Shown: positions 3,938 through 38,706 of the stretch, one piece after another
How the letters are laid out: every line of letters begins with the position of its first letter
Position numbering within the stretch: position 1 is the stretch's first letter
Assembly (NCBI RefSeq): GCF_001316285.1
Contig: NZ_BBDO01000005.1
Span: forward strand, 62,001 to 126,000
DNA from: Vulcanisaeta sp. JCM 16161
GTDB taxonomy: Archaea; Thermoproteota; Thermoprotei; Thermoproteales; Thermocladiaceae
Length of the DNA stretch: 64,000 bases
Direction: 5' to 3'
Made by a program: the position numbers and the translations under genes
The notes under the pieces: generated by a model
Databases searched by the model: none
What the model saw: the letters and a program-made list of their open reading frames with translations, nothing else
Told to the model about the DNA's origin: nothing

Positions 3938-4744
3938 TTGCTCAAGTTACTTGAGGAGGATGAGGAGTTCAGGCTCATGGTAGCCGCTAAGTTGGGAATA
4001 CTGGATATCCATTCAATGCTTAAGGAGCTCATGAACGCAGTCAATAAGTTAATTGAGGTTGATAGAGGCGTGTTAGAGAACCAGGATAGGATGCTGGACG
4101 CGTTCAAGGGCATTTTAGAGAACCTAGATAGGTTATGGCAGGAGGTTAGGGCGTTGCGTGAGGGTCAGGAGGCCATGAGGAATGACGTGAGTAAATTATG
4201 GGAGGAGAATAGGAGAATCAATGAGAATATTGAGAAATTGTGGCAGGAGGTTAAGGTCTTGAGGGAGGGTCAGAGTAAGTTGTGGGAGGAGGTCGTCAAG
4301 ATTTGGGGTGAGATTAGGGATATGAGGATGGAGCTTAGGGGCCTTAGGGATCTCTACGGTGGTTTATCAAAGTCCGTTGGGTCTATACTCGAGATGAATG
4401 CTAGGCATTACCTACCAGTTTGGGTCAGGAATAACCTGGGCCTTAATATAGGTAGGTTGAGGAGGTTTGTTGTTAGGGGCGTAGTCGAGGTTGACGGTTA
4501 CGCCGAGGTTAATGGGAGAGCCGTGGTCGTTGAGATCAAGGCGACCCTGAGGTTGGACGATGTCCTGGAGTTCGTGAACTCGAAGCTCCCAAAGATCAGG
4601 GAATCGAGGCCTGGCGTTGAGGTGATTCCAATAATAGTCTATGTGAATGAGGCTGAGGATACCGATAAGGCCATCAAGTACGCCAGGAAGAGCGGGGTCA
4701 AGGTGCTCAGGCACATTGGTGAGGACGAATTTGAGGAGGCCTAA
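3938..4744 (+). CDS. coiled-coil PD-(D/E)XK nuclease, copy 1 of 3
   Basis: 268 residues. The N-terminal module LLKLLEEDEEFRLMVAAKLG (about 2-30) is shared with the copies at 29519-30688 and 37966-38706. A coil of LW-E-V-K-L-EGQ-type repeats follows (about 45-145), then a nuclease-like core: VEVDGYAEV, then VVVEIKATL (the D-x(n)-E-x-K signature) and a final alpha/beta part. This is the DUF3782/COG5493-type architecture from memory. TTG 3938 is preceded directly by an in-frame TAA. The other copies start about 4-12 residues earlier, so the true start may be GTG 3913 with an error at about 3935. Substrate is unknown. Neighbours are an ATPase and a HEPN/MNT set. Confidence 0.8.
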   Translation: MLKLLEEDEEFRLMVAAKLGILDIHSMLKELMNAVNKLIEVDRGVLENQDRMLDAFKGILENLDRLWQEVRALREGQEAMRNDVSKLWEENRRINENIEKLWQEVKVLREGQSKLWEEVVKIWGEIRDMRMELRGLRDLYGGLSKSVGSILEMNARHYLPVWVRNNLGLNIGRLRRFVVRGVVEVDGYAEVNGRAVVVEIKATLRLDDVLEFVNSKLPKIRESRPGVEVIPIIVYVNEAEDTDKAIKYARKSGVKVLRHIGEDEFEEA

Positions 4745-4889
4745 CTACCCACGCCCAGCCTAGATTAGACACGCAAGCCTTTAAGCCTTAATTACCGACT
4801 TACTATACATCCCTGCCTACCCCCATTTCCCCAATCTAAAGGGCAGGTCACGGTAGTGCCTTATTAATTAAGTTGGTAGTACTCTATCG

Positions 4890-6012
4890 ATGAGGAGTAG
4901 GGGTTCACTATCGACAATACTCGCCGGAATACTGGTCTTAATCGCCCTACTCATGGGCATCGGCATAGCCATAGAGGTCATGTCGGCGGTAATAACCCTA
5001 GAAAACCTAGCGGTCAACCACGTGAATACCGTCGGCAGGGCAGCAGCCACATACAGTGGATTAATAATCCAGGGAGACACGCTACTAAGCACCAAGGCCC
5101 AGTGACGGTAATAGCGCGGTGACGCCAGGTGGTTTTAAGGCTATGAACATGACAACGTATGAGTACGTAAACAACGGCACAGAGCCCGAACTACTACTGA
5201 CCAATGTCGGGCCCGTGCTACTAGACCCAACCCAGCAGTCGGTTAGTGATGCCAGGTTAGTGAGTGGCGGCATGAACATAATTAGTAACTACCTAAATCA
5301 CTGGGTCGAGGCCGTGGTGGTCACCGGGCAGGGCAGTGAGCAGTTGTTTAGTGGCGTGGTCGTAATGATCAATGACGAGTTCTACCTACTGCACATATCC
5401 AGGGATAATGACCCGAGCTACATCGTCGGCCCACTAATGGGGAGTAACGCCTACGTGATTCATGACTACGGCATTGGCCAGTACGGCTGCGAAGCCCTCT
5501 ACTCATTCCCCTGGAAGTGGTTTGTCAATGAACCGCCGAGTAACACCACATGCCCAGCACCACCACCAGGCCCGGTAACCACACTCCTGTACCAGGGGTA
5601 TTGGCCTGAATTGTCGATAATTCTCATAAACACGACCGCGATAAAGATCGAGGTAACGTTTAAGGAGGGGACCAGATTCTCGGCAATGCCCCAGTACTTC
5701 ACACTGAGTTTCCTGGACCAGGGAAGCGCCAGGTGGTTGAGCCCAACCTGCGTTGGAGCTGGTGAGTACCGGGGATGCTCATTCACAATGGGCGCCATGT
5801 ACTCAACACTACAGCAGAACCTCAATTACAGCATTGTGGTTAACTTCGGCCGGGAGGCACCGAGGAACTACTACCTAATAATGACCATAACCTACGTGGA
5901 TGGCCTACCCAATGAGTGGTTCGTGTGGAACATAACCAATTACTCAGTGGTTAATTACCCAATGTGGCTCGACGCCGGCGGCCCACCAGCTAATGTCTTG
6001 TATGATGGTTAA
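4890..6012 (+). CDS. pilin-like secreted protein with N-terminal membrane helix, one frameshift
   Basis: Two frames (4890-5105 and about 5090-6012) join into about 370 residues. The N-terminus MRSRGSLSTILAGILVLIAL has a short basic stretch followed by a hydrophobic helix, like archaeal class III (pilin-type) signal sequences. The rest is a large beta-rich exported domain with Asn-X-Ser/Thr sequons and four or more Cys residues. There is no C-terminal membrane segment. The break lies at about 5095-5118 (GNSAVTPGGFKAMN reads through in the second frame). TATA-like ttattaattaag stands about 25 nt before the start. Likely a large pseudopilin or surface adhesin; exact role unknown. Confidence 0.65.
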
Positions 6013-6014
6013 GG

Positions 6015-6359
6015 TCAATGGCTCATTAACTCCCTATAGAGCCTGAGCCATGTGTATATTGACTCACCCCCAGCCACAAGCCTATCCCTCAGGACCCTAT
6101 ACGCCGTTGTGTAGCCCCTGAAAACGAGGAATGCATAGAAGGCATTCAACTTCGCCCTATCTCCAGCATCACTACCGAAGTCGCTTAACAGCATCCTCAG
6201 CGTGTGCGCATGCCTAACCCTGACCTCACCCTCCTCGCGGTTCCACCCAGCCACCAACTCACTTATGAAGCTCATGAACTCATCAATAAATCCCAGATAA
6301 TCACTGGGGACCATACTCCTTAAGTACTCCCTATATCTGGTCTCCCAATCCCTGGGCAT
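6015..6359 (-). CDS. uncharacterised small helical protein
   Basis: 114 residues, mostly helical and charged, no membrane segment and no Cys. Visible features are an Arg/Tyr-rich N-terminus (PRDWETRYREYLRSM) and a middle VRHAHTLRMLLSDFG. It is read towards the pilin-like gene and ends 2 bp from that gene's stop (convergent). Frame intact, ATG start at 6359. No family recognised. Confidence 0.6.
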   Translation of the reverse strand: MPRDWETRYREYLRSMVPSDYLGFIDEFMSFISELVAGWNREEGEVRVRHAHTLRMLLSDFGSDAGDRAKLNAFYAFLVFRGYTTAYRVLRDRLVAGGESIYTWLRLYRELMSH

Positions 6360-6542
6360 TGGTTAATCGCTTAATTAACGGGCCTATAAACTAATCGTGC
6401 AGGATACACAGCCTCATTCACCAACTGAACCCGCGCCAGGCCCGGGAAGACTGCCCTAGTGGGTGCTCAATGGGGCGTTGCTACGGATGTATAAAGAGTT
6501 TTTTTCAGGGTTGAAAGTGACTAACGACACGATTACGAGCAC

Positions 6543-6550
6543 TTATAAAT
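6543..6550 (+). promoter_or_regulatory. TATA box of the pilin gene
   Basis: ttataaat stands 27-30 nt before the in-frame ATG at 6573, the spacing expected for a leaderless archaeal transcript. This decides the start at 6573 over the upstream TTG at 6561. Confidence 0.65.
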
Positions 6551-6572
6551 TATTGGGGAGTTGATTGTATGT

Positions 6573-7085
6573 ATGCAGAGTAGAATGAATAGGAGGGGCA
6601 TATCAAACGTGGTGGCTACGATAATACTCATAGCCGTGGCTATAGCGCTGGCTGTGGCGGTGGCTGTGTGGGTCTTCGGCCTAGCAGGCTCAGCGAGTAA
6701 GACATCGACGTTGACTGTTGTAATGGCGCAGTTAACTGGTGTTTCTAGTGGTAAACCCACCTTGACTCTTACGGTAAGTAATCCGTCGAGTAGCTCAATA
6801 TCCATAGTAGCGTTGGTAATAGGGTCATCAACCTGCCAGTCACCAAGTAATAGTCCAATAATACAAATAAGCGCAGGCGCCCAGGGAGAAATTATATTCT
6901 CAGCAAGCAGTTCGACCAATGTAACTTCCTTAACTGTGACGGCACAAGGCAACGGCATAACTATACCAAGCAACTCAACCACATGTAACTCACCAATTAA
7001 CTTCCAAACAGGTGTTCAGTACAGTGGCGAGCTAATAACAGCAAGCGGCCAGACATACCCATTCACAGTAACAGCAAGCTCATAA
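6573..7085 (+). CDS. archaeal type IV pilin with class III signal peptide
   Basis: 170 residues from ATG 6573 (ATG 6585 also fits). The N-terminus MNRRGISNVVATIILIAVAI is a classic archaeal pilin signature: basic residues, RRG/IS processing region, then a long hydrophobic helix (DUF1628/Pilin_N type). The prepilin peptidase probably cuts after RRG. The mature domain is Ser/Thr-rich and beta-rich with two Cys (STCQS and TTCNS) that could pair. A T/C-rich tract follows the stop. The secretion-type membrane protein at 59473-61017 could belong to the same assembly machinery, but no ATPase is in the window. Confidence 0.85.
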   Translation: MQSRMNRRGISNVVATIILIAVAIALAVAVAVWVFGLAGSASKTSTLTVVMAQLTGVSSGKPTLTLTVSNPSSSSISIVALVIGSSTCQSPSNSPIIQISAGAQGEIIFSASSSTNVTSLTVTAQGNGITIPSNSTTCNSPINFQTGVQYSGELITASGQTYPFTVTASS

Positions 7086-7121
7086 TGAACTAGCGCCTTA
7101 AATAAATCGCATTAAAAATTA

Positions 7122-7142
7122 TCCCTCTTTATTTTCTCTTCC
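7122..7142 (+). terminator. pyrimidine-rich terminator-like tract after the pilin gene
   Basis: tccctctttattttctcttcc lies 37-57 nt after the pilin stop. Oligo-T/C stretches are the usual archaeal termination signal. Similar tracts follow the surface genes ending at 14743 and 29393. Confidence 0.5.
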
Positions 7143-7169
7143 ATCTGTAGTGATTAATTTTGGCGTTGA

Positions 7170-7899: not shown

Positions 7900-8028
7900 G
7901 CGTCGCCACCCATAGGTCCTCAATACACACCTTGTTAATCCACAGTCTCCGGCTGACCCGGGTAATAAATAATTAATTCTTAATGAGGATCATGACCCTA
8001 ATCAATTAATTATTCCCCGCCTCAGTCG

Positions 8029-8298: not shown

Positions 8299-8350
8299 TA
8301 ATAACCACAGGCCAGGGTTAATAAGATAACCAAGTAAAATAGGTGATGGG

Positions 8351-8890: not shown

Positions 8891-8959
8891 TGATTAGGGA
8901 GGAAGAAGGAAAGAAGGAGAAGTGCGTTTTTAATTGGTGAGGCCGCGCCAAAGCCTCAC

Positions 8960-11271: not shown

Positions 11272-11579
11272 TGGCCATAATGGGCGCGAGTACACTATAC
11301 CTACTCATATCCCTACTAACAACCAGCATATACCAAATACCACTCATCGCAATCCCCACAGCAATCACAATCGCACTAAGCCTATACACAATCTACGCAT
11401 TAAATAAGGGGGTCAGTAAGGCCTTAATCGCCGCGACAGCCACGGCAATAGCCCTCGGACTAGCAACAACGCTAATCATCTTCACAATTGGGTTGAGAGC
11501 CTCGGCAGCAGCCCTGGGCTCGGGCTGGGTAATCTACGGGGTCGGGGCCTACGAACTACTGAGGCTCTCGAGGGCATAA
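11271..11579 (+). CDS. small integral membrane protein with about four helices
   Basis: 102 residues, nearly all hydrophobic. Helices fall at about 3-20, 24-44, 50-72 and 76-97, separated by very short loops; ALNKGVSK forms the one clearly charged loop. It is coupled to the zinc-ribbon miniprotein by a one-base overlap and ends just before the upstream element of the 1,000-residue surface gene. No family recognised. Confidence 0.65.
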   Translation: MAIMGASTLYLLISLLTTSIYQIPLIAIPTAITIALSLYTIYALNKGVSKALIAATATAIALGLATTLIIFTIGLRASAAALGSGWVIYGVGAYELLRLSRA

Positions 11580-11596
11580 ATATATACTTACCATGA

Positions 11597-11689
11597 AATT
11601 ATAAATATTTTATTTATAAGTTCCAACGAATCGATAGGGCGCAGTGGAAAATTCAACGAATGTTCCAAGGGTGTTCTTTAAAAACCCCC
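11597..11689 (+). promoter_or_regulatory. two-block upstream element of surface gene 1
   Basis: Block 1 (11597-11634, centred on tattttatttataagttc) and block 2 (11654-11689, caacgaatgttccaag then tttaaaaacccc) match the leader of the giant gene at 21720-21811 almost base for base. The distance from block 1 start to block 2 start is 57 bp in both. Block 2 contains the TATA-like tttaaaaa about 28 nt before ATG 11707. Block 1 is probably an activator site for coordinated high expression. Confidence 0.7.
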
Positions 11690-21825: not shown

Positions 21826-24800
21826 GTGATGACAGGTCTAGGAATGAAAACAGGACTAATTAAACAACTAAAACCACTCACGGTAATAATCGCGTTAATG
21901 GTAATGGGCGTAGTACTCGGGCTTGGACACCCACTGCTTGCGCAGTCCTATGGGCCAACGTCGGTGCCCATACCGCCAGTGACGTATACATGGACCCTGT
22001 ACTGGAACCTAACTGATGCCAGGCTGCCCTACGGCGCCACGCCAGTCAATTCAATAGCAGTTAGTACCTATAACTATTTAATTAATTATATGGTGCCGTG
22101 GTACTTCACGGCAAGTAAATCATTCAGCATATACATAGCCAACGCAACCGACGTCTACTACTGGAACGGGACCCAGTTCATACTCTACTCACCAATAATC
22201 ATGAACGCAACCGCAACAACAAACTCAACAGGCGGTATAACCTGGACCGTCAGTACCACACTGACCAATGGAATAACACCGAGTCAGGTATATGCCAATT
22301 GGACCATTGTGGTTGTACTCAACAACTATGGAGGAGCCAACTGGATGGTATTCAACGTAACATCAACATTCATGGACCTCGCAGACTTAATGGGCAACCT
22401 AACAACAATAAGCACCAGTAGTTACGTACCGGTTTCACCATCAATAGCCTCAAGCCTAATACCGCAGGTAACAACCACCATTACATACGCATTGCCAAAT
22501 GGGACCCAGGTAACGGCCTATGTATACCACCTATTCACCCCCGTATGGGGTGCTGAAACAACGCCAAGCGACTTATACGTAATACTACCAGACCTATACT
22601 TCTTCTTCTTATTTGCTGGTGCATCGGTTAATCCATCAGTTGAGCCTGTGTCACTACCATCAACCGTGCAGTTGCAGGCAATACTGACGCTAGGCACTGG
22701 AGTAGCGGTGTTTGAATCAACCCCGAACAGCACGGTTACCTCGGCATCGCAGTATATATATACGGTCACGTACACGGGCTTCGGCCCAATCTACTACGTA
22801 ACCAACGAATTCAGCGGCCTAAACCCGGCAGATCATAACTACCCAATGGTCACTGCGGAGCCCGTGACCCTAACGGTTAATGAGGTATTCCCAAGCGGCC
22901 AAACCCTAATGCTCTTCAACTACACAACAGCAACCTCTAATTACCAGACAACGCCAGAGTCATTTAATCTGGCCCAGGCATATACATGGCCATCACCGGT
23001 AACCCCAAGTTACACTGTGAGTCTGACGGCGCTCTCAAACGTAGCCCAGGCAGACCCAGACTGGCTCATTGGAGTCCCAGTCATTGAGTTCTATATCGGT
23101 GATGTCTACGACTTAAAGGCCAACCCAATAATCGAAAGCTCACTGACGGTGCCGCCATCAATAACGGCAGAGCCTAACCCAATAGTCGCCAGTAAGCTCT
23201 ATGTAAAGTGGTTGTTGCAGACGACCCCGGTGGCTACCGTAATAAGCGAGAACTACCTGCCGTACTACGAGACATCGCCAGCCCTAGTGCCGGTTGGTCA
23301 ATTCACGGGTACAGGACCATCAACGCCAAGTTTCACAGCCCTGTCAGTATCGCCCGAGGTCCAGATATTCTTCGAGAGCCAGCCAGTATTCACAGCCCAG
23401 ATAACCGGTGCATCGCAGTCATCACCGCTCATACAGTTCATAAACAATATTTACGTATCCCTATTGCCCGTGTTCATAAACCTGACGCAGTACGCACCAG
23501 GCGTACCGGCAACAAGCCAGTTGCAGCTAAGTCCTAACATCGCGAGCCAGGTAACCGTGTATTACGCCTACTCACCGAGTGTTAGCCAGTTAATACAGAC
23601 GGCACCGCCGTCATACGCAACACAGGGTAGTGTCTATTATGCTCAGAATGTCTACGTTACGTACCCAACGGTTTCCCAACTACCGCGGCCTTCGCCACCT
23701 TCCCACCATTCACCCAGTCGGTTGTTTGGGGCGTACTCGTGACCCCACAGGTTAACTGGTTCCCAGCACCACCACTGAGTGGCACGTACAACGCAACCTC
23801 CATGAGCTTGACTGAGAGCGTGACGCAGGAGCAGACCTACTACTACGCCTTCTGGGTGACTTACAACGGCATGACGGTGGGCTATGGACTATTCGAGCTC
23901 GGTTACGAACCGTCAACGACATACTTCTACAACCCAGTTACCGGCGTTACATCGCCATTCACGTACCAGCCGGTCTTCGACGTATACCCAGTGAGCGAGA
24001 GCAATTCAACGCTGCTGTCATTCTACGACAACAGCAGTGAGGTTGGCATAGGCAACTTCCTGGGCGGTGCGCCGGCACAGATAACAACATTGAGCGTTTA
24101 TACCGAGGTTGCCTACATAGCGGTGTCCTACACGGTGTATGACGTGCAATTCCTCAACCTATGCAATGAGACAATAACCACAGGCACCGTTAGCATAAGT
24201 GAGTTAACACCAAGTGGTGCAACTGTCTCATTACCGCCGGTCCAGTTAAGCTCCATGGCGTACATCATGAAGATAACGGCCCCAATAGCAATGCAGATAT
24301 CCTCGGTCTCTGGAGTGCCTTACATAGAGACCATGTCCCCAGTATTCAACTTCACGCTGAATTACTACGGCTACATAATGCCAAGCGTCAGCTACACAAC
24401 GAGGCAGCCCAAGTATAACTACATGCTGACCCCCGGCATCATTAATGTTGTTTACTTCCCGCTAATTGACATTAACATACAGGTGCTGAGCCAGACAACG
24501 CCGCAGTACCCACTGTGGGGCTTTGTTGTGAATATGTATAGTGCAGTGACTGGGCAGAAGATGTGGGAGGCAATAACCAACTCCAGCGGTTATGTCTATA
24601 TAATGAACGTTCCACTTAATGCAAGCTACATACTACCGCAGGGCAAGGCATACGTAATGCTCAAGGTTAGGACAATAAGCCCGGCCACAGACAGTGTCTA
24701 CCCATACGCCTCTGTGTCGCAGCAGTACGGGCAGACGTACCAGGCATATGCAAGCGCCTTGGGAATACCGAGTAGCTACTACGCCTACACGCTTGGTACC

Positions 24801-27800
24801 AGGGGTCCATTCGATGAGGACTTAACAATATACTATGAGCAGTTCTCAGCGCCGGTGACGACAACATGTGGTCAGGTATTCCCAATAACCGTGCCAGTTG
24901 AGAACCTACACATAGTGGTTACTGACCTGAAGGGCAACGTCCTAAGCAGCCAACCAGTCTACCCATGCGCCACGCCGAGCTACTGCCCAAGCTTCTACTA
25001 CAACGTGACGTTGGTACTCGATGACCAGTATAGCCCATACTACCTAGCCAGCCAGTGGCTAAATGGCTACTTCGGGACCTACTGGCTAAACCTGACTGAC
25101 TTCAGGGTTGTTGGGCAGACCTGGATGCAGCCTGAGTATGAGGCCCTGGAGAGTACATTCCAGTCATTAATAGCCGCTGACCAGGCAGCGTACCAGAGTG
25201 GCATGATTAGCCTACAGCAGTTCGCTGAGTGGTATGTTGGTAACTACAGCTACTACACGCTGGCGGCAATGCTGGCCAACTACAGTACATCATCGCCATT
25301 CGCAATATTCACATTCCCGTCGATAGTGCCTCACGAGGGCACGATATTCACGAGACTATTCATGCCAGCCAGGCATTCCAGATGAAGGTCTACTACCTAG
25401 GGCAGGAGGTGTTTAACCAGATAGTCCCGGTGCCACCACCTAACGAGAACGTCATAGTGACACCAACTGGCAAGGTTGAGTACACCACAAGCCCAGTGAC
25501 AGTTTACATAGCCGGGCAGGCAGTCACAATACCGCCAAACGGCACGATAATAATCGAGACCAGCGTATACCCAGTTACCTTCAACATAACCAGCAAGAGC
25601 GGCATATACCCAGTGGGCAACACCTACCTAGCCTAACATTCACGGACGTGCTCTATAGAGAGTACGTGATGCCGCCATACTCAGCACTAAGCACGCCAGT
25701 GGCCCAGAACTACATAAGCAACATATTATACCCATTCAACGTGACTGGCTCAGGACTATTAACGCCATCAGAGCTTGAGTTGCTGACGAAGGGCACGTAC
25801 GCAATTACTGAGACATATCAGACATCAACCGTTAACTATAACCCGGAGGCTGTGGCCAGCGAGGAGCCATTAACTAATGTCTACTCAATGGCTGGTTACG
25901 TACTACCAGACCTAATGGGCTTTGTAGTTAACTCCAGTAGCCCAACAACAAGCCTAACACCGCTATACATGACCAGTATATCCCCGAACGTATTTAGCAC
26001 AACACCAATTGCAGTGGCCTTTAACCTAACCATGGGCATACCGATATACGCCCATGTCGGCACGACAATAACCGCAACGGCATACCCCAACGACACATTC
26101 CTATACGCACCAAGCGTGGCCTATAGTGAGTATAGGCTATTAGTCAATGAGTCGCTGATGGAGCCTGGTGTAGTACCAATACCGGCAGTGATTGATGGCT
26201 CACCAACCACACTAACAGCCAGCCCACTGGCTGGTCTATACCCAACGACGTATGCAGTTGAGGTTTCACAGATGGCGAGCAGCAAGGTCAACTTCACGTA
26301 CTACGCAGTGCCCAACCTAGCCAGCTACAGGCTGTGGGAGGCCTACGTCAACGCCACTGGAATGACCTCAGTCACCAACGCAACAATAGGCATATACGCA
26401 GCCAACACCACTGGTTGGTACTACGTGTACAGCGTTAACGTAACATCAACATTCCAGCAGGCAATGACAAGGACAGTGCCATTATACGTCTACCTGAACT
26501 ACGGCAAGATAACAAGCGTTGTCCAGTCACCGACTGAGGTTGCAGTCGTACTCTACGTATACGGCAGCGGCACCTACTACATACTACCACCGGCCTACTA
26601 CGGAGATCACACGCACATTGAGTACCCACCAATAAGCAGTGGCTTTGGCGGTGTGGTGCACCACTACACAGAGAGCCTGTACACGGTTGCGACGGGTTCA
26701 ATGGCGGGAACAACACAGACAGTAACATTCACGTACCCAACAGTGAATGCCACGTGGTATCCGTACTTCGGAAGCCCACTGACAGTGGTGATACCAATAC
26801 CGAGTAGTGGTGAGGCCGTGTTCGACATGCGTGGTGGGCACCAACAACTGGCGCCTATGGTACGAGGATTGCGAGATTCTGGATAATGGGTACAACGAGC
26901 ACGACGAATGTTGGTTACGGTAGCATAACGCCAGTAATAACACCAAGCCAGTATGTAGCTGGTACAGTATCTCCACTACCTGAGTATGCAATCAGCAGCT
27001 ATGTACTCCTGAACTACATAACACCAAGCGGTGGAGCAACGACAGTATACACCGGCGAGATACCGTATGGAGTGGTTACAAGCAATGGTACACTATACAT
27101 GACAGCCATTGGCGCAGGCACAGGTGGTACATCAGCACCAATGTTAATGTTTGACACACTATTCCCAGAAGACCTATGGAACGTGACTATGAGCGCAATA
27201 CAGGCTGTCAGTGGTGTCTACAACCTAAGGACAGTCGCGCTGGAGAGCGTTGACATATACAACGGCGCCACATTCCCAATAATAGTCACTGGAATAACAT
27301 ACTCAATACCAAGCGGTGCTGGGCAGGTCAGCATATCACCAACCGCTGTACCGCCAAGCACAATGGTGCAGATACCAGTGCAGTACATCTACGGCAGCAG
27401 CTATGAATTCACATCAACGTGGTGCGACCTAGCAACTACACGCCATACATACCAGACCTATCAGCAACCTTCTACTATGAGCCGCCAAACGCCACCTTCT
27501 ACTTAGCCAACGGAACGGCACTGCCATTCACGGTGTACCCGAACGGCCAGGTAACCATTGGACCATACACCTACAGTATAAGCCAGCTGGAGGCGCCGCT
27601 TAAGTCCGTAGCTATCAACTTCACCACGCTATACGCAGGCAGTGAGTTAACGCAGCTCAATACGTCAGTCGCAATACCGCAGTTCGGAGAGAGTGCCGTA
27701 AGTGGTGTATACTATGAGTCATACTACAACGCCACAAGCTCAATAGTTGGTGCTGACTCGTTCGTGCATGATGACCTGCCATATCCAACATACGTATCAC

Positions 27801-29393
27801 TTACCAGTGGCAGGCATGTGTACTGGAACATAGCCGGCTACACAGGACCGCTGGCAAGTGCAAGCAATGACACTGAGGCTAAGCTGTACTTCACATACCC
27901 AACAGTGCCGCTGGCAGCCATTGAGGACTGGGATGGTAGGCCACTACCCAACCAGATGGTTGTTGAGTACGGAGTAGGCACAACGCCAGTGCTCTGTGCA
28001 GGCACTGCGCCGATAGCCATTGACTTCAGCGGCGTTAATGGACAGCTACTGCAGCCACTACCAGCCGGTGCTAATAGGACCGTGGTGTACTGGTACGACA
28101 GCTGCCTACTATACACAATAACCAGCGGTGCCTACCCATACATTGACATATACGACACAAACATAGCCACCGACGTGAGTACACTGGGCAACGCCTTCAC
28201 GGCAACCTCAGTTGAGACCCACGTGTCCCAGCCACCATATACCTAAAGAGCGCCACAGGCACTGGAATACCGGGCGCCCTAGTCGTTGTGTTTGACCAGC
28301 CAACAATGGGCAATGAATTCCTAGGCTTCAACGTAACCGGCACCGACGGCTCAATAACACCAGTCGACTACAGGATATACCCACCAGCCACGAGCCAGCT
28401 ACCGCCAACCAACTACTACCTAGTCGCCTACTACGCGGCCAACGGCACGCCACTCACGTGGCAGGAGATACAGCAGGCAATAAGCAGCCACTCAACGCTG
28501 TACCTAGTGCCTGTATTCGAGAACACCTTCAGCATACAGAGGACTGTAACTGCCACTGAGGCCATTGAGTCCTTCACACTAAGCAACATACTGACCACCG
28601 CAAACATAGTAGTCGTGTTATCAAGCTTCGGCCCAGCGCCTGGCGTTACCCTGAGCTACAGCGTGTCTGAACCCGAGTGCCCAGTGACTATAACCGCCAT
28701 ATCACCTGCATCAACAATTGTCGGTTACACGTACAGTGTGACGCCACTAATGCCATCACCAAGCGTGTGCAAGCCTGTCACGGCAGTGACTGGCTCTGGA
28801 ACGACTAATGCCCAGGGCCAGATAACGACGACGACCTTCGTAACGCCAGTGGCGCCATTCGCGGCTCAGGTAACGATAACGGTGCAGTCATGGAAGGGCA
28901 TACCACTGGCTACACCTACACCTACTACGTAACCAGTAGTAATGCGACGACGCCAATACAGGTGTCTGTGCCTGCAGTTGAGTTGACAGTGACCCCGGTG
29001 AGTGCCAGTGGTGCTCCGTTGACGACGCAGGCGACGGTCAACGTGACATGCAGCGGCGTCCCAATCGCCAGCGGTGTTGGTCAGCAGACGGTGGTTGTCC
29101 CAATACCGAGCAGTGGCTCAATAACGTGTACAATAACTGGTTATAGCTATGGAAAGAGCGCGAGCACCACGGTGACGCTGACGAGTAGCCAGGCTGGGCA
29201 GACAATAACGAAGACGCTAACGATACCGGTGAGCGGCTACTACATACCTGGCGTGGGCTTCGTGCCGGTGAGTACATTCATACTGCTGGCCGTTGTGATA
29301 ATAATCATAATAATACTAATAGTGATACTGCTGATTGAGTACAGCAACTGGAGGAGGAGGAGATTAGCCGGCCTGCTGGGTCCGCCGAAGTGA
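21826..29393 (+). CDS. giant secreted surface protein (S-layer candidate), several frameshifts
   Basis: About 2,520 residues in eight open stretches joined by shifts near 23690, 25383, 25630, 26860, 27420, 28240 and 28900. GTG 21826 or ATG 21829 opens the signal peptide (LTVIIALMVMGVVLGLGHPL, cleavage near AQS). The body is Tyr/Pro/Thr/Ser-rich and beta-rich with dozens of Asn-X-Ser/Thr sequons and almost no Lys or His. The last 150 residues form a distinct anchor: a beta domain, then IPVSGYYIPGVGFVPVST, a long membrane helix and the basic tail EYSNWRRRRLAGLLGPPK. The same module stands alone at 40152-40676. Size, composition, anchor and strong promoter suggest the main S-layer protein; that is inference. 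Confidence 0.8.
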
Positions 29394-29518: not shown

Positions 29519-30688
29519 GTGAGTAGGCAAGCGGATAAAATCAATAGGGATGAGCTGCTCAGGCTTCTTAGGGAGGATGAGGAGCTTAGGCTAGCCGTGA
29601 TGGGGCTGCTTGGCATTACCGACATTCAGTACTCCCTGAGACAGTTAATAAACGCCATTAACAAACTCGCCGAGGCCCAGACCAGGTCTGTCAATGCAAT
29701 GCAGGGTATTGCCGAGGGTGAGGCCAGGATTACGGAGATGCTCGGTAAGGTGACTGACATGTTGGCTAAGATCAACGAGATGATTATGGACCTCGCGGAG
29801 ACCCTGAGCAGGACCATCGACATGGTCGATAAGCTGGCCAAGGGACAGGAGGGGCTGGGTAACGCCATTAAGCAGTTGGCTGACGTACAGAGGGTTACCT
29901 GGGAGGCGGTTAAGCAGTTAATTGATGGTGAGGGCAAAATACTCGACCTACTCAGGCAGTCCCTTGACTCACAGGGTAGGCTTTGGCAGGAGGTAAGGAG
30001 TCTCCAGGAGCAGGTCAAGGCGCTTCAGGAGGGCCAAAACAACCTACTCACCGAGATCAAAAGGTTGGGCGAGAACCAGGTGGCGCTTTGGCAGGAAGTC
30101 AAGAGACTAGCCGATAACCAGGATAGGCTTTGGGAGGAGGTCAAGGCCCTTAGGGAGGTCCAGAATAAGCTCCTCGAGGAGAATAATAAGTTATGGCAGG
30201 AGGTGAAGGCGTTAAGGGAGGAGGAGACTAAACTGCGTGAGGGTCAGGAGAGACTTTGGGAGAGGTATGATAGGCTTGATAGGAAGTTATCAGCAATTGG
30301 CGCCAGGTGGGGTATACTCAGTGAGGACGCCTTTAGGAAGGCCATTGAGGAGTTACTCAGTGGGGCTGGTTATAGGGTTGAGAAGTGGAGTTATAATGAC
30401 GCTGAGGGTTACGTGTTTGGTTACCCAAGCGTTGTCGACCTAGACATAGTGGTTAAGGATAACAAGACCTTCGCAGTGGAGATAAAGTCCTCGGTGAGCA
30501 GGGGCGATGTGATGGCATTCAAGCGCATTATGGAGCTTTACGAGAGGGTCACCGGCAGGAAAGTAGACGCCAGGTACTTAGTGACCTACTTCATTGGGGA
30601 GAGGAATGAGGATGCCGTGATTAAGCTAGCCAACTCCCTGGGGATAAGGATCATAGAGCCTGAGGAATTAACGAAGGGGCAATCGTGA
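29519..30688 (+). CDS. coiled-coil PD-(D/E)XK nuclease, copy 2 of 3
   Basis: 389 residues from GTG 29519, about 30 nt after a TATA-like ttatattta. The shared N-terminal module LLRLLREDEELRLAVMGLLG (about 12-45) is followed by the longest coil of the three copies (about 50-255, with LWQEVKALRE and EGQNNLLTEIK repeats). The nuclease core has EDAFRKAIEELL, VVDLDIVV and FAVEIKSSV: Asp then Glu-x-Lys. The GTG of the HEPN-MNT gene overlaps its TGA (GTGA), so both are made together. This core is of the DUF3782/COG5493 kind from memory. The extra coil length looks like repeat expansion. Confidence 0.85.
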   Translation: MSRQADKINRDELLRLLREDEELRLAVMGLLGITDIQYSLRQLINAINKLAEAQTRSVNAMQGIAEGEARITEMLGKVTDMLAKINEMIMDLAETLSRTIDMVDKLAKGQEGLGNAIKQLADVQRVTWEAVKQLIDGEGKILDLLRQSLDSQGRLWQEVRSLQEQVKALQEGQNNLLTEIKRLGENQVALWQEVKRLADNQDRLWEEVKALREVQNKLLEENNKLWQEVKALREEETKLREGQERLWERYDRLDRKLSAIGARWGILSEDAFRKAIEELLSGAGYRVEKWSYNDAEGYVFGYPSVVDLDIVVKDNKTFAVEIKSSVSRGDVMAFKRIMELYERVTGRKVDARYLVTYFIGERNEDAVIKLANSLGIRIIEPEELTKGQS

Positions 30689-31471
30689 TCTTCATGAGGC
30701 TGAGGAGAATCCTTGACCTGCTAAGTAAGTACTTTAGTGAATTCAGGGATATGCGTAGGAGCGGTGGGAGTATTTACGCGATCGAGAGACTTGCCCAACT
30801 AACAATACAGGCCCTGCTGGACCTGGGCGCAATGCTCGCAATTGAACTCAGGGACAAAAAGCCTGAGACCTATGGTGGTGTTGCCGAGTATCTATCCAAC
30901 AAGCTAGGCCTGGGCGAGGACTTGAGGAGGTTCCTGAGAGGTCTCGCCGGCTTTAGGAATGTGCTGGTTCATGGGTACGCAGAGATTGATAGGGGCCTTG
31001 AGGAGGAGGCGTTTAGGGAGATGGAGGAGAAGCTACCATTAATACTCGAGAAACTCAGCAACTTCATAAGCAGTGTTGGTGATCCGGGGCAATTGAGCAT
31101 TGAGGAGTTGAGGGTTAGGCTAAGGCCGGTGTTTGAGAGGTATGGCGTCAGGTTCGCATTCCTATTCGGCTCGAGGGCCAGGGCCGGGGTGGGTAGGGAC
31201 TACGACATCGCGGTTTCCGCAAGCCTCAGGAGCGCCTGGAGCTCGGCGGGTTAATAGTGGATATAGCCGAGGCGCTGGGAGTAACCGAGGACCTGGTCGA
31301 CGTGGTGCACCTAGAGAGTGCGGGCGCTCGATCCTCTACTCGGTGATTATTGATGGTGTGGTGATCTACGGCGATGAGGATGAGGCCATGAACTACCTAT
31401 GGAGGAGGTATCTGGAGCTCCTGGACATTAACGAGTATGTAAACCACCTAGAAAGGCGCGTAGGCACCTAG
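30685..31471 (+). CDS. HEPN-MNT fusion (HepT-like plus nucleotidyltransferase), one frameshift
   Basis: About 261 residues. Residues 1-130 are a HepT/DUF86-like HEPN domain with the RNase motif FRNVLVHGY (R-x4-H) and AIERLAQLTIQALLDLG. Residues 135-260 are an MNT nucleotidyltransferase: FLFGSRARAGVGRDYDIAV (GS and D-x-D). The frame shifts near 31210-31255 and continues GGLIVDIAEALGVTEDLVDV to 31471. Toxin (RNase) and antitoxin (AMP-transferase) are normally separate genes; here they are one chain. Translation is coupled to the coiled-coil nuclease (GTGA overlap), so nuclease, RNase and antitoxin may act as a unit. Confidence 0.85.
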
Positions 31472-31955: not shown

Positions 31956-32493
31956 GTGGAAGCGCTCGAGAAACCGCTGCCTAAACCAACCACCGAGGAC
32001 TATGTAATCGCCAGGCTACTGGAGGCCTTGATCGAGGCTAGATTGGCCCTTGAGTTCCTGGGTACTTGTTAGGGATGCTGCTGGTAAGGCCTTCCAGGCA
32101 TGGAGGGCCTTGTTGGCTGCCTTACTGAGGCTCGAGCTTGATAAGCTAATCCAGGTTGCAAGGACTGAGGAGGAGCGTAGGTGGCTAATGGAAAGAGCTG
32201 TACCGAGGATACCAACAAGTAGGATGAAGATGCTCTCCCAAATGCTTGAGGAAATAGGCTACTACGGGCTATCATTCGCAACGGCCATAGCCCTGGAACT
32301 ACATGACTACCAATACAATGGGCCGGACCCAGACCTAGCACTATCGAAATACAGGGACAGGCAGGAGGCGGCAATAGACATAAAACTCCTCATAAAGGAG
32401 CTAGTGAATAGGGTTGAGGAACTTAAACCAAGGACAAAGTGGAGTGACGAGCTCGAAAACACACTAAACGAATTAAGGAAGGCCATTAAATAG
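31956..32493 (+). CDS. PaREP1/PaREP8-family protein, one frameshift
   Basis: About 179 residues from GTG 31956 (about 30 nt after taagtatttaagg) to 32493. The first frame gives TTEDYVIARLLEALIEARLA and meets TAG at about 32070. The second continues LVRDAAGKAFQAWRALLAAL to the end (PRTKWSDELENTLNELRKAI). The pattern ARL-EA...AAGKAFQAWRALLAAL is the hallmark of the archaeal PaREP1/PaREP8 family, first seen as repeated genes in Pyrobaculum aerophilum and related in fold to HEPN proteins. Function unknown. Repeat copies 1 and 2 lie on either side in opposite orientation. Confidence 0.75.
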
Positions 32494-34231: not shown

Positions 34232-34270
34232 AAATAATTTAAATATGCCCTTCCTTTAAAGGGTTATTGA

Positions 34271-35135: not shown

Positions 35136-36068
35136 GGGTTTCCGTTATAGTACCTACATATAAAAGGGCTTGGTCATTACCATACTTATTAAATGGCTTG
35201 ATTAATCAATCTATTAAGCCAGTGAAGTGATTTTTATATTAAAGCCGTCAGGCGATGGCAGTGAGGACGTGATTAGGCGTTATGAAGATAAATTGAACAT
35301 AAGGGTCATAATCCAGGAGAGAGGGCATGCGATAGATGCTTATGACATGGGTATTAGGGAGGCTGATGGCGATTTGCTGTTATTCATTGATGATGATGCG
35401 GTACCCCATGAGGATTGGGTAAGGAGATACATAGAATTATTCAGTAAATTGGCAGATGCGGGCGCAATTGGTGGTTTATCGTATAAAGCTTATTTAATTA
35501 ATGGAGAGATTAAATTAACAAATGAATCATTATTTGGTAATGAATCAACGAAAAACGTATTTTACAGGAAACCGCTTAAGGAGCTTTATGATTATTGCCG
35601 TTGGCTATCAATTAGCGGCTTTCCTGGCTCAAGGCCATGCATAAGTCCCGTTATGAAGTCGGTATTACTTAATGGAATGAATATGGGCTTTAAATCTGAG
35701 GCTTTAAAAGGTTGAATTTAAGTAAGGCATATTTCGATAGCAGGAGAGGTTTTCACTTTGAATCTTATATGGCATATTACGTGGTTAAAAGAGGTTATTC
35801 GTCATATCACGTAGTAAGTAATGAGTTTGCACCTATTGTTTGGCATATAGAGAGTCATAGGGAATCATTAACGAGAAAACCAGGCTTTTGGAGCGAATTT
35901 TGGCTTCACTTTGATAGGGCAAGTATGTATTTTAGGCTTAAGAGACTTGGTGCAGACGTATCATTATTGGCTTATCTGGCGGCGAATGCATCACTTATGA
36001 GGAGGAAGCCATTACCTCGCTTATTGGCAACAATTTATGCTTTAATTTATAATTCATTGTTTTTATGA
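35132..36068 (+). CDS. GT2-family glycosyltransferase, two frameshifts
   Basis: About 311 residues. GTG 35132 overlaps the previous TGA. The start VRVSVIVPTYKRAWSLPYLL is the classic GT2 opening; after a shift near 35227 comes IREADGDLLLFIDDDAVPHE, containing the DDD metal site. A second shift near 35713 leads into AYFDSRRGFHFESYMAYYVV and a terminal amphipathic or membrane-associated helix (LATIYALIYNSLFL). Likely transfers a sugar during glycan or N-glycan assembly; donor unknown. Confidence 0.8.
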
Positions 36069-36164
36069 CTAGGCGAAATAACGTTGTTCATGATATCACG
36101 GTATATAATACGCCATATATGGCATGTTGAAATACTTTTAATACTTCAAGGAATTACTGCTGCT

Positions 36165-37428
36165 GTGCAATCTATAGTGGCGCATCGTTATTGGGGAGCG
36201 CCGGGTGGCGGACAGCTCGTCTGCGCCTCTGCGGCTATTGCCCTGGATAAGGCGGGACTTAAGCCCATACTCACTGGTACATTTAAGTTTGACCCTGCTA
36301 AGTACGTTGATTGGTATGGTATTGACATTTCCAGGTATGAGGTTCGTACTTTAATGCCCGTTAACATTAAGGCCTTTGGTTTATGGACTAGGCTTTACAT
36401 GTGGAGACCAGCCAAGGAGGTTCTTGATAGGTTTAGCGTTAAGGTTTTATTTATTGATGATGAGACCTATAAACCATTGGTTAAGTATAGGTCTCGTGGA
36501 TTAAAAATCATTGAGTATATTCACTTCCCGCTTGAGGTTGTTGTTGACCCTAGGTTTAGGGGTAGTGGGCTTGCCTATGGTGAGGATCCGTACATAATGG
36601 AGAGATATGGTAGGTTCCCGATGAATGTTTACTGGGGCGTATTCACCAGGTTGCTGCCTAGGTACCTAAGGGAGAATCCATTCCGTGATGCCGACCTTGT
36701 CCTAACTAATTCTAAGTGGACCGCTGGCGTGGCTAGGATGGTCTATGGTGAGGAGCCGGTTGTGCTTAACCCGCCGATACCGCCGAACATGAGTGTTTTG
36801 GGTTCCGTTAGGGGGTTTGGGGAGAGAGGTAACTTGGTGGTCATGCTTGGTAGGTTTAGTGAGGAGAAGCGTTATCACTGGGTTGTGTCTGAGTTAATGC
36901 CTAGTCTCATTAAGGAGGTGCCCGGTGTAAAGTTGATTATTTTTGGTGGTGCAACTACTAGGACTCAGTTAAGCTACGTTAATAGGGTTGTTGATTTAGC
37001 TAGGAGAAGTGGTCTTAATGTTAAGGTTGTTAGCGAGGGCTCTGTGCTTAGTGAATTAGATAGTGAGCACCAGGTTTACCTGAGGCTTAATGCGCCCAGG
37101 GCTGAGATTAATGAGGTCATGGATGAGGCCAGGGCTTTTCTACACGCCACAATCAATGAGCATTGGGGTATTGCGGTTGCTGAGGCCATGGCTAGAGGCT
37201 TGCCCGTAGTCGTGCATAAGAGCGGCGGTGCTGGAGTGACCTGGCAATGAATGGTGAGGTTGGGCTAGGCTATGAAAACACTGACGAAGCTATTGAAGCC
37301 CTAGCTAAGCTCATGACAGACGCCAAGGCATGGAGTAATTACTCCATGAAGAGCCTGGGTAGGGTTAGGGACATAACCTTCGACAAATTCGTCGAGAGCT
37401 CGCCGAGTTAGTTAGGAAGATCCTATAG
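36165..37428 (+). CDS. ALG11-like GT4 glycosyltransferase, two frameshifts near the end
   Basis: About 420 residues. GTG 36165 gives MQSIVAHRYWGAPGGGQLV and lies about 28 nt after a TATA-like acttttaatac; a longer frame to 36084 has an unlikely leader. The N-terminal GT-B half carries VLTNSKWTAGVARMVYGEEP. The C-terminal half carries LGRFSEEKRYHWVVSELMPS and ATINEHWGIAVAEAMARGLP, the HWGIAVAEAMA motif typical of the ALG11 alpha-1,2-mannosyltransferase group. A break near 37245 continues DLAMNGEVGLGYENTDEAIE; another at about 37398 restores LAELVRKIL with a stop at 37428. A role in archaeal lipid-linked N-glycan synthesis is plausible and would serve the heavily glycosylated surface proteins. 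Confidence 0.8.
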
Positions 37429-37466
37429 TTTTTCGAAGGTTTTTAAGTCAGTAGTACGCAGTATGA

Positions 37467-37973
37467 GTGATGGTTGTTTCACTTGAGTTGCCGAGGGTTA
37501 TTTATGAGAAGGTTAGGGAAAGGGGTTTGGATATTGAGGACCTCGTGATGTATGCACTAATGAATGCTATGCAGTTAGACCCTGGTGAGCTGGCTAGGGC
37601 GAGGCTTGAGCTCGCAGATAAGTACTTAAGCGAGGCCAGAGAATACGTTGGTAAAGGTGATGCCGTCCAAGCCAGTGAAAAGGCCTATAAGGCCGTGGAG
37701 GAGTGCGTTAAGGCATTGGCTGAGAAATTCAACATACCCGAGTACCAAGAGGCCGTGAGGAGTGGCAGGTGGTTCGCTTATTTGCTCGGTAGGGCGGCTA
37801 GGACGTTGAGTGGTAAATTAGGTGAGTCAAGGATTGTTGATGCTTGGTCAAGGGCGTATGACCTACACATGTGGGGTTTTCATGAGGGTAAGTACGGAAT
37901 TGATTATGTAAAGGTTGACATGCCGCTCATTGAGTGGTTCGTGAACTACACCAGGCAGTTAGTGGCTAGGTGA
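37467..37973 (+). CDS. PaREP1-family protein
   Basis: 168 residues, intact, from GTG 37467 or ATG 37470, about 25 nt after ttttaagtc. The pattern LELADKYLSEAREYVGKGDA, then QASEKAYKAVEECVKALAEK and WSRAYDLHMWGFHEGKYGID, is diagnostic of PaREP1 (PF05942-type). The N-terminal 45 residues (VSLELPRVIYEKVRERGLDI) look like a short DNA- or partner-binding extension. PaREP1 folds like HEPN proteins but the RNase motif is not seen. It converges on nuclease copy 3 with an 8-bp overlap of the stops. Confidence 0.85.
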   Translation: MMVVSLELPRVIYEKVRERGLDIEDLVMYALMNAMQLDPGELARARLELADKYLSEAREYVGKGDAVQASEKAYKAVEECVKALAEKFNIPEYQEAVRSGRWFAYLLGRAARTLSGKLGESRIVDAWSRAYDLHMWGFHEGKYGIDYVKVDMPLIEWFVNYTRQLVAR

Positions 37974-38706
37974 GTTCCTCGAAGTCATCCTCACCATGGT
38001 GCTTAACGACCTTGATACCGTTAGCCCTCGCAAGCTCTATGGCCTTGCCCGTATCCCTCGTCTCATTCACATAGGCTATCACGGCAATGACCTCTCTACT
38101 AGCCTTAACACTCCTTAATTTGCTCACTTTATCCACGAAGTCCTCGACATCCCTAAGCCTAAGCGTTGCCTTAATCTCGGCAGCAATCACCTTATTATCG
38201 ACCTCCGCATAACCATCAAACTCGCCAACACCCTCAATCCTAGCTCTCCTAAGCCTATCAACATTAATGCCAAACCTCTCCCTAACCCAATTAGGCAGGT
38301 AATGCCTAACATCACGCTCAACCAAAGCCCCAACAGTCCTAGAAATGCCAGAAAGCTCACGCCTAATACTCCTGTTCTCTTGCCATAGCCTCTCTTGATT
38401 ATCGGCAAGCCTCTTGACCTCCTCCCAAAGCCTATTATTCTCCTGCCATAATTTCTCGATGTTTTCGTTTATTCTCTTATTCTCCTGCCACAACCTGTTT
38501 TGGTCCTCGCGTAATGCCCTAACTTCTTGCCAAAGCTTCTCCTGGTCCTCGGCGAGTCTTTGTACTGTCTTCACCAACTCATTGACCGCATTAATTAATT
38601 GCCTAATTGACGATTGAATATCGGTAATGCCAAGCAGCCCCATCACGGCTAGCCTAAACTCCTCATCCTCCCTCAACAAACGCAAAAACTCATCACGAAA
38701 AGACAT
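37966..38706 (-). CDS. coiled-coil PD-(D/E)XK nuclease, copy 3 of 3
   Basis: 246 residues, intact. Starts MSFRDEFLRLLREDEEFRLA, the module shared with copies 1 and 2. The coil (about 38-115) consists of LW-E/Q-N-R repeats. The core is GVGEFDGYAEVDNKVIAAEI: Asp, then AEIKATLRL with Glu and Lys. It resembles copy 1 more than copy 2 in the nuclease part (RHYLPNWVRERFGINVDRLR against RHYLPVWVRNNLGLNIGRLR). ATG 38706; a TATA-like tttaaataac lies about 20-30 nt before it. The end overlaps the stop of the PaREP1 gene. Confidence 0.85.
   Translation of the reverse strand: MSFRDEFLRLLREDEEFRLAVMGLLGITDIQSSIRQLINAVNELVKTVQRLAEDQEKLWQEVRALREDQNRLWQENKRINENIEKLWQENNRLWEEVKRLADNQERLWQENRSIRRELSGISRTVGALVERDVRHYLPNWVRERFGINVDRLRRARIEGVGEFDGYAEVDNKVIAAEIKATLRLRDVEDFVDKVSKLRSVKASREVIAVIAYVNETRDTGKAIELARANGIKVVKHHGEDDFEELT

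What the first reader, a model, noticed from the sequence alone, without database searches (positions are those of the whole stretch)
3938..38706. Three coiled-coil PD-(D/E)XK nucleases, each next to HEPN-type genes
Copies at 3938-4744, 29519-30688 and 37966-38706 share an N-terminal module (LLRLLREDEE...), a coil of variable length and a Glu-x-Lys nuclease core. Copy 2 is translationally coupled (GTGA) to a HEPN-MNT fusion; copy 3 converges with 8-bp overlap on a PaREP1 gene (HEPN-like fold); copy 1 lies within 2.3 kb of a HEPN/MNT pair and an ATPase. Repeated pairing suggests a nuclease plus RNase-toxin module that could serve in defence or stress response. The family architecture (DUF3782/COG5493-like) is known to me only as uncharacterised; the association is inference.
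Basis: partly seen in the sequence, partly recalled or inferred. Interest (0 to 1): 0.7.

Follow-up and report, generated by a model that had tools for sequence, protein, structure and literature searches.

The report
Archaeal coiled-coil nucleases with swappable cores
Three related proteins of a hot-spring archaeon, predicted to cut DNA, share a front end but not all the same cutting end; one is encoded together with a toxin-type RNA cutter, and relatives suggest that cutting ends are moved between genes by recombination, a possible way for archaea to vary such enzymes.

Summary
The three genes are real, at the stated coordinates, with PD-(D/E)XK motifs and models whose cores match NucS/EndoMS. 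They are not one kind: copy 2 is DUF3782 + PDDEXK_10; copies 1 and 3 carry another core (PaREP7/DUF8196-type).

HEPN pairing holds for copy 2 only. N-module + PDDEXK_10 genes have HEPN/HepT/MNT directly downstream in 8 of 57 cases, other nucleases 0 of 157, control genes 6 of 833. HEPN, HepT, MNT or PaREP1 within 2 kb: 35 of 115 nucleases, against 10% of random control places and 21% elsewhere in the same regions; much of the wider association is island-level, and PaREP1 shows none beyond it. A PaREP1/MNT/DUF1626 neighbourhood is already in print (PMC3710099).

Unexpected: within one genome, genes with different cores share 86-100% identical DNA over N-module and coil. In Vulcanisaeta distributa two such genes form a perfect 363-bp inverted repeat; in JCM 11217, a diverged relative, the segment between is inverted, exchanging the cores. 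This rests on assemblies. Defence function is inferred. The window's own HEPN-MNT frame is broken, probably by sequencing errors.

The parts
3938..4744 (+). Copy 1: N-module (3938-4042, lacking the first residues seen in relatives) + coil + DUF8196/PaREP7-type PD-(D/E)XK core (about 4364-4741, by length analogy with copy 3)
   Evidence: ORF; N-module and core HMM hits; alignments
29519..30688 (+). Copy 2: N-module (29546-29656) + long coil + DUF3782 + PDDEXK_10 core (about 30320-30685)
   Evidence: ORF; Pfam; model; fold matches
30685..31254 (+). HepT-like HEPN domain (R-x4-H-x-Y) fused to the start of an MNT domain, coupled by GTGA to copy 2; the frame is broken in the MNT part, further matching pieces run to 31456 in other frames
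37966..38706 (-). Copy 3: N-module (38584-38706) + coil + DUF8196/PaREP7-type PD-(D/E)XK core (about 37969-38346)
   Evidence: ORF; HMM; model; fold matches
37467..37973 (+). PaREP1 gene, convergent with copy 3 (8-bp overlap)
   Evidence: PF05942 130.7 bits
32050..32493 (+). Second PaREP1-family gene, 1.4 kb beyond copy 2
   Evidence: PF05942 74.0 bits
1634..1984 (-). HEPN (PF05168) gene, 1.95 kb from the start of copy 1
   Evidence: 85.7 bits
1323..1646 (-). MNT nucleotidyltransferase gene overlapping the HEPN gene
   Evidence: PF18765 32.5 bits, PF01909 27.1 bits
2518..3583 (+). Archaeal ATPase (ATPase_2 hit on the first piece), apparently split into two overlapping ORFs, between the HEPN/MNT pair and copy 1
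21826..29393 (+). Pieces of one giant protein (2,520 aa in V. distributa), by eye of surface type, directly upstream of copy 2; synteny marker of the copy 2 site
   Evidence: eight tblastn pieces at 21841-29390 in three frames

Best explanation
These are members of one modular archaeal nuclease family: a conserved N-terminal module of about 40 residues, a coil of variable length, and one of at least four C-terminal PD-(D/E)XK core types. SHOWN by sequence: architecture, catalytic residues, fold of two core types (predicted models), a recurrent operon of the PDDEXK_10 type with HEPN/MNT, and in relatives the same N-terminal DNA joined to different cores. INFERRED: the N-module and coil oligomerise the enzyme and bind a common partner or signal, so that whichever core is attached acts under the same control; the core cleaves DNA (close folds NucS/EndoMS). 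In the copy 2 type the nuclease is translated together with a HEPN RNase kept inactive by its own MNT domain through adenylylation (known for HepT/MntA); failure of that control under stress or infection would free an RNase next to a DNase, giving dormancy or self-killing. Copies 1 and 3 are family members without a proven partner. The N-module/coil DNA is the homologous stretch through which cores are moved.
Against: Only a minority of N-module PDDEXK_10 genes carry HEPN/MNT (8 of 57), so the partner is optional. The MNT part has GS-x8-DxD, not the GSX10DXD named for MntA. The operonic V. distributa copy reads D-L-N where relatives read D-L-D. Pattern scans of viral contigs confirmed no member and the copy 2 site is vertically conserved, less typical of mobile defence islands. 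Foldseek E-values are only 0.004 at best. Both JCM 11217 genes at the inverted locus look frame-broken, and its flanks are only 79-86% identical to V. distributa, so the age of the inversion is unknown. No activity is demonstrated.
Confidence: 0.55

Rival explanations
1. Island co-occurrence: nucleases, PaREP1, HEPN and MNT genes are all expanded paralogous families that accumulate in the same variable regions, and adjacency is mostly incidental.
For: 21.1% of places elsewhere in the same 20-kb regions also have such a gene within 2 kb; PaREP1 is not enriched near nucleases beyond that (20 of 115 against 14.8%, p 0.43; largest PaREP1 cluster 13 of 41, p 0.08); HEPN and HepT alone p 0.10 and 0.09.
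Against: MNT is in excess even against the same regions (19 of 115 against 7.1%, p 0.0007), and the same-strand, immediately downstream HEPN/MNT arrangement is specific to one core type and recurs in distant archaea.
Confidence: 0.3
2. One reading: a general nuclease + RNase-toxin module covering all three copies.
For: All three copies in this window have a HEPN-type gene within 2 kb; 3-fold excess over random control regions.
Against: 0 of 157 nucleases other than the N-module PDDEXK_10 type have HEPN/HepT/MNT on the same strand within 400 bp downstream; the excess over the same regions is only 1.4-fold.
Confidence: 0.1
3. Housekeeping DNA repair or chromosome-structure enzymes (NucS/EndoMS-like cores on coils), with no link to toxins.
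For: Close folds are NucS/EndoMS; copy 2 and 3 sites are syntenic in Vulcanisaeta-type genomes; pattern scans of viral contigs confirmed no homologue.
Against: Very variable copy number, exchanged cores and broken copies are unlike repair genes.
Confidence: 0.15
4. Nucleotide-signalling module: the MNT-type enzyme makes a nucleotide signal that switches on the nuclease, as in CBASS or type III CRISPR effectors.
For: A PADLOC model described as 'Diadenylate cyclase' (C3a181) hits all three nucleases (E 2.2e-28 for copy 2); cores also resemble the signal-activated nucleases Can2, Card1 and NucC.
Against: Those matches reflect the shared nuclease fold; the model's label does not fit a nuclease and may be a clustering label; MNT here is a minimal domain fused to HEPN.
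Confidence: 0.05

Closest known systems
PDDEXK_10 / DUF1626 (PF07788, COG5493) with DUF3782 (PF12644)
   Same: Copy 2 matches both above cut-off. PMC1913061 (passages read) already assigned DUF1626 to PD-(D/E)XK and noted the N-terminal coil; PMC4786415 (passages read) describes crenarchaeal coils of this family.
   Different: The passages read do not mention an N-terminal module shared with other core types, core exchange, or a HEPN-MNT operon.
PaREP7 / DUF8196-type proteins
   Same: Copies 1 and 3: some close homologues are named PaREP7 or DUF8196 in source databases; PaREP7 is plotted as a repeat family in P. oguniense (PMC3558965, passages read).
   Different: Predicted here to be PD-(D/E)XK nucleases with a NucS-like core.
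HepT/MntA type VII toxin-antitoxin
   Same: PF01934 HEPN with R-x4-H-x-Y plus an MNT domain; adenylylation mechanism from PMC7641770 (abstract and outline read).
   Different: Fused in one chain, GS-x8-DxD spacing, coupled to a coiled-coil nuclease; below NCBIfam cut-offs.
HEPN-T(Parep1/8) neighbourhoods with MNT and REase DUF1626 (Anantharaman et al. 2013)
   Same: PMC3710099 Table 1 (passages read) lists PaREP1/8 genes in operons with MNT and REase (DUF1626). [quoted passage not shown]
   Different: Here the HEPN partner in the nuclease operons is HepT-like or PF05168-type, and the link is quantified by core type.
hsdS shuffling by DNA inversion (Spn556II; PMC4948785, abstract and outline read)
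   Same: DNA inversions among related genes exchange functional domains.
   Different: Here whole nuclease cores are exchanged, in archaea, with no recombinase identified and no population data.
Polymorphic toxins with swapped C-terminal domains (recalled, no call)
   Same: Constant N-terminal part, interchangeable C-terminal catalytic part.
   Different: No secretion module or immunity gene was looked for systematically or noticed.

Membership tests
[quoted passage not shown]
PD-(D/E)XK nuclease superfamily | Conserved acidic residue in helix A, D in strand 2, E-x-K in strand 3 | tested here: met
   Copy 2 E269, D309, E321-K323 (A2; K not invariant in the family); copy 3 E130, D164, E177-K179
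PD-(D/E)XK nuclease superfamily | Metal-dependent nucleic acid cleavage | not testable with these tools
   no assay
PF07788 PDDEXK_10 / PF12644 DUF3782 | Score above curated cut-off, copy 2 | tested here: met
   86.0 and 85.4 bits
PF07788 PDDEXK_10 / PF12644 DUF3782 | Score above curated cut-off, copies 1 and 3 | tested here: not met
   no PF07788 in the rows shown (best 25 of 31 and of 70 by E-value; the last rows shown score under 16 bits, cut-off 21.2); PF12644 22.0 bits for copy 3, under 24.4, and not shown for copy 1
HepT/MntA type VII TA | PF01934 HEPN with RX4-6H motif | tested here: met
   57.5 bits (cut-off 23.5); RNVLVHGY aligned to 7ae9
HepT/MntA type VII TA | NCBIfam HepT and MntA cut-offs | tested here: not met
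   53.2 and 15.4 bits against 60 each, on a broken frame
HepT/MntA type VII TA | GSX10DXD motif in MNT | tested here: not met
   spacing is 8 in the window and in the intact V. moutnovskia relative; motif as given in the abstract of PMC7641770
HepT/MntA type VII TA | RNase toxicity neutralised by adenylylation | not testable with these tools
   no assay
Invertible domain-exchange locus | Inverted repeats inside two genes with different downstream domains | tested here: met
   363 bp, 100%, 2,608 nt between, V. distributa
Invertible domain-exchange locus | Both orientations observed at the same site | tested here: met
   V. distributa against JCM 11217; two diverged assemblies, not one population
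Invertible domain-exchange locus | Mixed orientations within one population; dedicated recombinase | not tested
   no reads held; no recombinase was sought
PaREP1 (PF05942) | Score above cut-off for 37467-37973 and 32050-32493 | tested here: met
   130.7 and 74.0 bits

The most novel reading that the evidence does not exclude
The N-module plus coil is a recombination hinge of an archaeal nuclease-diversification system: pairs and sets of genes share one N-terminal cassette, and inversion or gene conversion in it switches which PD-(D/E)XK core stands behind a given promoter and N-module, giving cells within a population different nuclease repertoires, comparable in logic to hsdS shuffling, with HEPN-MNT attached to one stable version.
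Probability: 0.3. Interest if true: 0.82.

Novelty: new variant of a known kind. Interest (0 to 1): 0.6.

Why it matters
DUF3782/PDDEXK_10, PaREP7 and PaREP1 are widespread in Thermoproteota (a copy 2-type profile matches 165 of 398 genomes) and no function for them is given in the papers I saw. Showing that one core type is operon-linked to HEPN-MNT while the others are not, and that cores are exchanged on a common N-terminal cassette, gives these families a testable role and offers a candidate domain-shuffling locus in a hyperthermophilic archaeon, checkable by one PCR or one long-read run.

Tried and rejected
Enrichment of PaREP1 next to nucleases: rejected beyond island level. Operon link for other core types: 0 of 157. 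Viral carriage: pattern scans with A2 and A1 matched 13 and 16 stretches, none confirmed. Sequence search of solved structures with A2: the 60 of 226 matches shown align to the coil or N-terminal part, so folds were used. P. oguniense population inversion (PMC3558965) considered as a precedent: the ORF at its reported end near 955.7 kb looks by eye like PaREP1, not a nuclease; its other end was not read. The PADLOC label 'Diadenylate cyclase' is not taken as function. A phylum-wide search gave counts but no loci for an operon census.

Rows dropped or special: enrichment used 115 of 117 nuclease ORFs (2 lacked 2-kb flanks). The MNT profiles were extended after a recall check found that HepT-linked MNTs were missed, and PaREP1 after a subfamily was missed. 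In one search, between-genome pairs at 85% or more: 13, of which 9 have the same core and 4 (115-179 bp) another. Same-genome: 14, of which 10 have tail scores of 25-49 (one, in G041, with an uncalled core), three have the same core, one involves a truncated gene. In one search six of the 22 are weak: two same-type genes of G028 (one truncated), a G041 pair with a truncated gene, and two genes with matches of only 49 and 72 bp; 16 remain. Ten further genes have their best N-segment match in the same genome with a related core. In one search, 66 flank-matched pairs from different genomes: 35 same core, 8 different, 23 with a gene whose core was not called; of the 8, four (all with L022) come from a neighbouring gene within the flank and two are one assembly counted twice, leaving three sites. 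At the thiM site 3 of 15 loci cut out have an N-module gene. The control genes come from Thermoproteales only, while 33 of the 57 N-module PDDEXK_10 genes come from the wider set.
Full report
WHAT IS THERE. The three ORFs exist at the stated coordinates. Copy 2 (389 aa) carries DUF3782 and PDDEXK_10 above cut-off; copies 1 and 3 do not. Copies 1 and 3 are 48% identical over 267 residues; copy 2 shares with copy 3 the N-terminal module and part of the coil (47% over 104 residues) and weakly the rest (32% over 237). Some close homologues of copy 3 are named PaREP7 or DUF8196-containing in source databases. A 100% match of copy 3 lies on a 2,291,514-base contig; another protein on a contig of that length is named Vulcanisaeta sp. 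JCM 16161, so the window probably belongs to that strain.

THE NEIGHBOURS IN THE WINDOW. Copy 2 is coupled by GTGA to a HepT-like HEPN domain followed by the start of an MNT domain. That frame ends early here; a 260-aa intact V. moutnovskia relative matches the window in three frames. The giant ORF upstream (2,520 aa in V. distributa) is likewise in eight pieces here, and other genes such as V-ATPase subunit I appear split by eye, so sequencing indels are the likely cause. Copy 3 overlaps a PaREP1 gene tail to tail by 8 bp; a PaREP1 match lies 20 bp from the 3' end of the corresponding nuclease in G001 and G019, and similar places can be read from the tables for G017 and G018; G016 and G020 show none within 2 kb. 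Copy 1 has HEPN and MNT genes 1.95 and 2.3 kb away beyond an ATPase gene.

ENRICHMENT TEST. In 45 genomes of the order, PDDEXK_10 occurs in 38, PaREP1 in 43, HEPN in 45, HepT in 32. From 15 genomes with large contigs I took 97 nuclease-centred 20-kb regions and 40 random ones and scored them with profiles built from the window and fetched relatives, with recall checks. Of 115 nucleases with complete 2-kb flanks, 35 have a HEPN/HepT/MNT/PaREP1 gene within 2 kb; random 800-bp places give 10.3% in control regions and 21.1% in the same nuclease regions at least 3 kb away (p 2.6e-9 and 0.02). Against the same regions MNT is in excess (19 of 115, p 0.0007), HepT and HEPN (7 each) are not significant alone, PaREP1 (20) is at background. 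These p-values treat related genomes as independent. In a clustering of 2,961 genes of these regions the HepT cluster is the top enriched one (9 of 13 near nucleases, uncorrected p 2.9e-4); the largest PaREP1 cluster is 13 of 41, p 0.08. Outside Thermoproteales, 10 of 38 N-module genes with room have such a neighbour within 2 kb, against 518 of 5,000 random places in the same set of loci.

THE OPERON. Counting only HEPN/HepT/MNT on the same strand within 400 bp downstream: N-module + PDDEXK_10 genes 8 of 57, other nuclease genes 0 of 157, control genes 6 of 833 (Fisher p 3.9e-7, odds ratio 22). The eight are three Vulcanisaeta-type genomes with a HepT-MNT fusion, L020 (Thermoproteaceae) and L021 (Thermoproteales), L056 (Hecatellales) and L062 (Methanomethylicota) with a PF05168-type HEPN, and L017 (single-cell crenarchaeote) with MNT then HepT. 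Counting the Vulcanisaeta trio and the L020/L021 pair once each gives 5 of 54, p 2.4e-4. The Vulcanisaeta operon keeps the order giant ORF, nuclease, fusion in all three single-contig genomes examined. Two different HEPN families downstream of the same nuclease type argue against descent of one accident. An earlier paper already lists PaREP1/8 genes in operons with MNT and REase DUF1626 (PMC3710099, Table 1 passage).

THE N-MODULE. N-module hits number 184 ORFs in fetched loci, window included and overlapping regions not merged, behind which lie PDDEXK_10-type (62), type C (40), DUF8196-type (31) and type D (22) cores, 29 unassigned. The four types are my labels from alignments A1 and A2. Types C and D were not modelled; by their motifs they look like further PD-(D/E)XK variants, type C with T in place of K in the rows aligned, as described for some DUF1626 proteins (PMC1913061, passages).

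CORE EXCHANGE. Among 61 N-module genes of 15 genomes, 14 same-genome pairs have at least 85% DNA identity over the N-terminal segment; 10 of them have C-terminal alignment scores of only 25-49, among them 100% over 363 bp (V. distributa), 97.8% over 228 bp (G003), 96.1% over 285 bp (G020), 93.1% over 350 bp (V. moutnovskia) and 93.0% over 345 bp (G043). Between genomes 13 pairs pass the same threshold; 9 have the same core and 4 short ones (115-179 bp) another. For 22 of 61 genes the best N-segment partner is in the same genome on a gene with a different or non-alignable core (16 after leaving out weak and truncated cases); 21 show the pattern expected of plain orthologues. Between Vulcanisaeta-type genomes the N-terminal segments of orthologues compared are about 79-85% identical, so selection alone does not explain 95-100% identity between paralogues.

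THE V. DISTRIBUTA LOCUS. In G016 the order is thiM, N-module with PDDEXK_10 core, two small genes, type D core with N-module on the other strand, right flank gene. The N-module+coil stretches are perfect inverted repeats of 363 bp with 2,608 nt between. In JCM 11217 the flanks keep their orientation while the segment between is reversed: the thiM-side gene has the type D core, the right-side gene the PDDEXK_10 core, and the kinase-like gene is on the other strand. The first bases of each gene stay with the site. At the same thiM site V. moutnovskia has a type C core. A protein from a further assembly (P0139) combines the left-site start MSRNLKDEF with a type D core. In Caldivirga a MAG contig (L050) joins the upstream flank of one MU80 gene to the core and downstream flank of another, with the switch inside the N-module/coil; as a MAG this is weaker. 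Caveats: a 363-bp perfect repeat could mislead the G016 assembly, though the JCM 11217 against V. moutnovskia difference does not depend on it; JCM 11217 is a draft in which both genes look frame-broken; its repeats are only 79% over 148 bp and 96% over 51 bp, and its flanks 79-86% identical to G016, so this is a difference between diverged lineages, not a mixture in one culture.

WINDOW COPIES AND EXCHANGE. Copies 2 and 3 are a convergent pair 7 kb apart; the corresponding genes lie 11-15 kb apart in G016, G019 and G020, each keeping its core type. Their N-modules share 86% over 86 bp, about what orthologues share, so no recent exchange is seen in the window itself.

MECHANISM. Shown: modular build, catalytic residues, operon recurrence, same N-terminal DNA on different cores. 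Inferred: the N-module and coil give oligomerisation and a common control input; the core cuts DNA; in copy 2 a HEPN RNase under MNT adenylylation control (HepT/MntA mechanism, PMC7641770, abstract) is made with it; together they would arrest the cell under infection or stress. Pattern scans of viral contigs confirmed no member, and no activity is tested.

LITERATURE. Searches for DUF3782, DUF1626, PaREP1, PaREP1 with HEPN, COG5493 and PaREP7 returned 2, 2, 4, 2, 1 and 1 papers. In the passages read (PMC4786415, PMC1913061, PMC3710099, PMC2701414, PMC3558965) none reports core exchange on a shared N-module; two listed papers (PMC3789801, PMC4389547) were not opened, and most subscription journals are not held. 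A search for archaea with DNA inversion, phase variation and inverted repeat found 17 papers, 15 listed, bacterial by most titles.

Noticed in passing
window 21826-29393, 30685-31456, 2518-3583, 47358-49093: Genes that are single ORFs in relatives (giant protein, HEPN-MNT) or look split by eye (ATPase, V-ATPase subunit I) lie in several frames here; the window sequence probably carries many small indel errors.
   Followed up: partly
L114:8336-8698 and 11307-11669; L004: Perfect 363-bp inverted repeat inside two nuclease genes of V. distributa, with the segment between inverted in JCM 11217.
   Followed up: yes
L050, L039, L041: Caldivirga MAG contig that joins the upstream flank of one N-module nuclease gene to the core and downstream flank of another, with the switch inside the N-module/coil.
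   Followed up: partly
G030:C1:1792951-1793565, G031:C1:957525-958139, G041:C1:1282629-1283209, G042:C1:350683-351239: Tail-to-tail pairs of two PDDEXK_10 matches a few hundred bases apart in four genomes.
   Followed up: no
copies 1-3: A PADLOC model labelled C3a181 'Diadenylate cyclase' hits all three nucleases (E 2.2e-28 for copy 2); the label looks wrong for a nuclease or reflects a system-level cluster.
   Followed up: no
window 40155-40580 (-): A second, shorter gene matches the C-terminal end of the giant protein found upstream of copy 2 (54.5% identity).
   Followed up: no
L115:9116-10534: The operonic V. distributa nuclease reads D-L-N where relatives have D-L-D at the motif II aspartate, so it may be inactive.
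   Followed up: no
L070 around 955.5-956.0 kb of P. oguniense: An ORF that looks by eye like PaREP1 overlaps the reported end (955,719) of a population-level inversion in PMC3558965.
   Followed up: partly
window 147-650 (+): A coiled-coil ORF with a hydrophobic start and no N-module lies at the window start; no informative family match.
   Followed up: no
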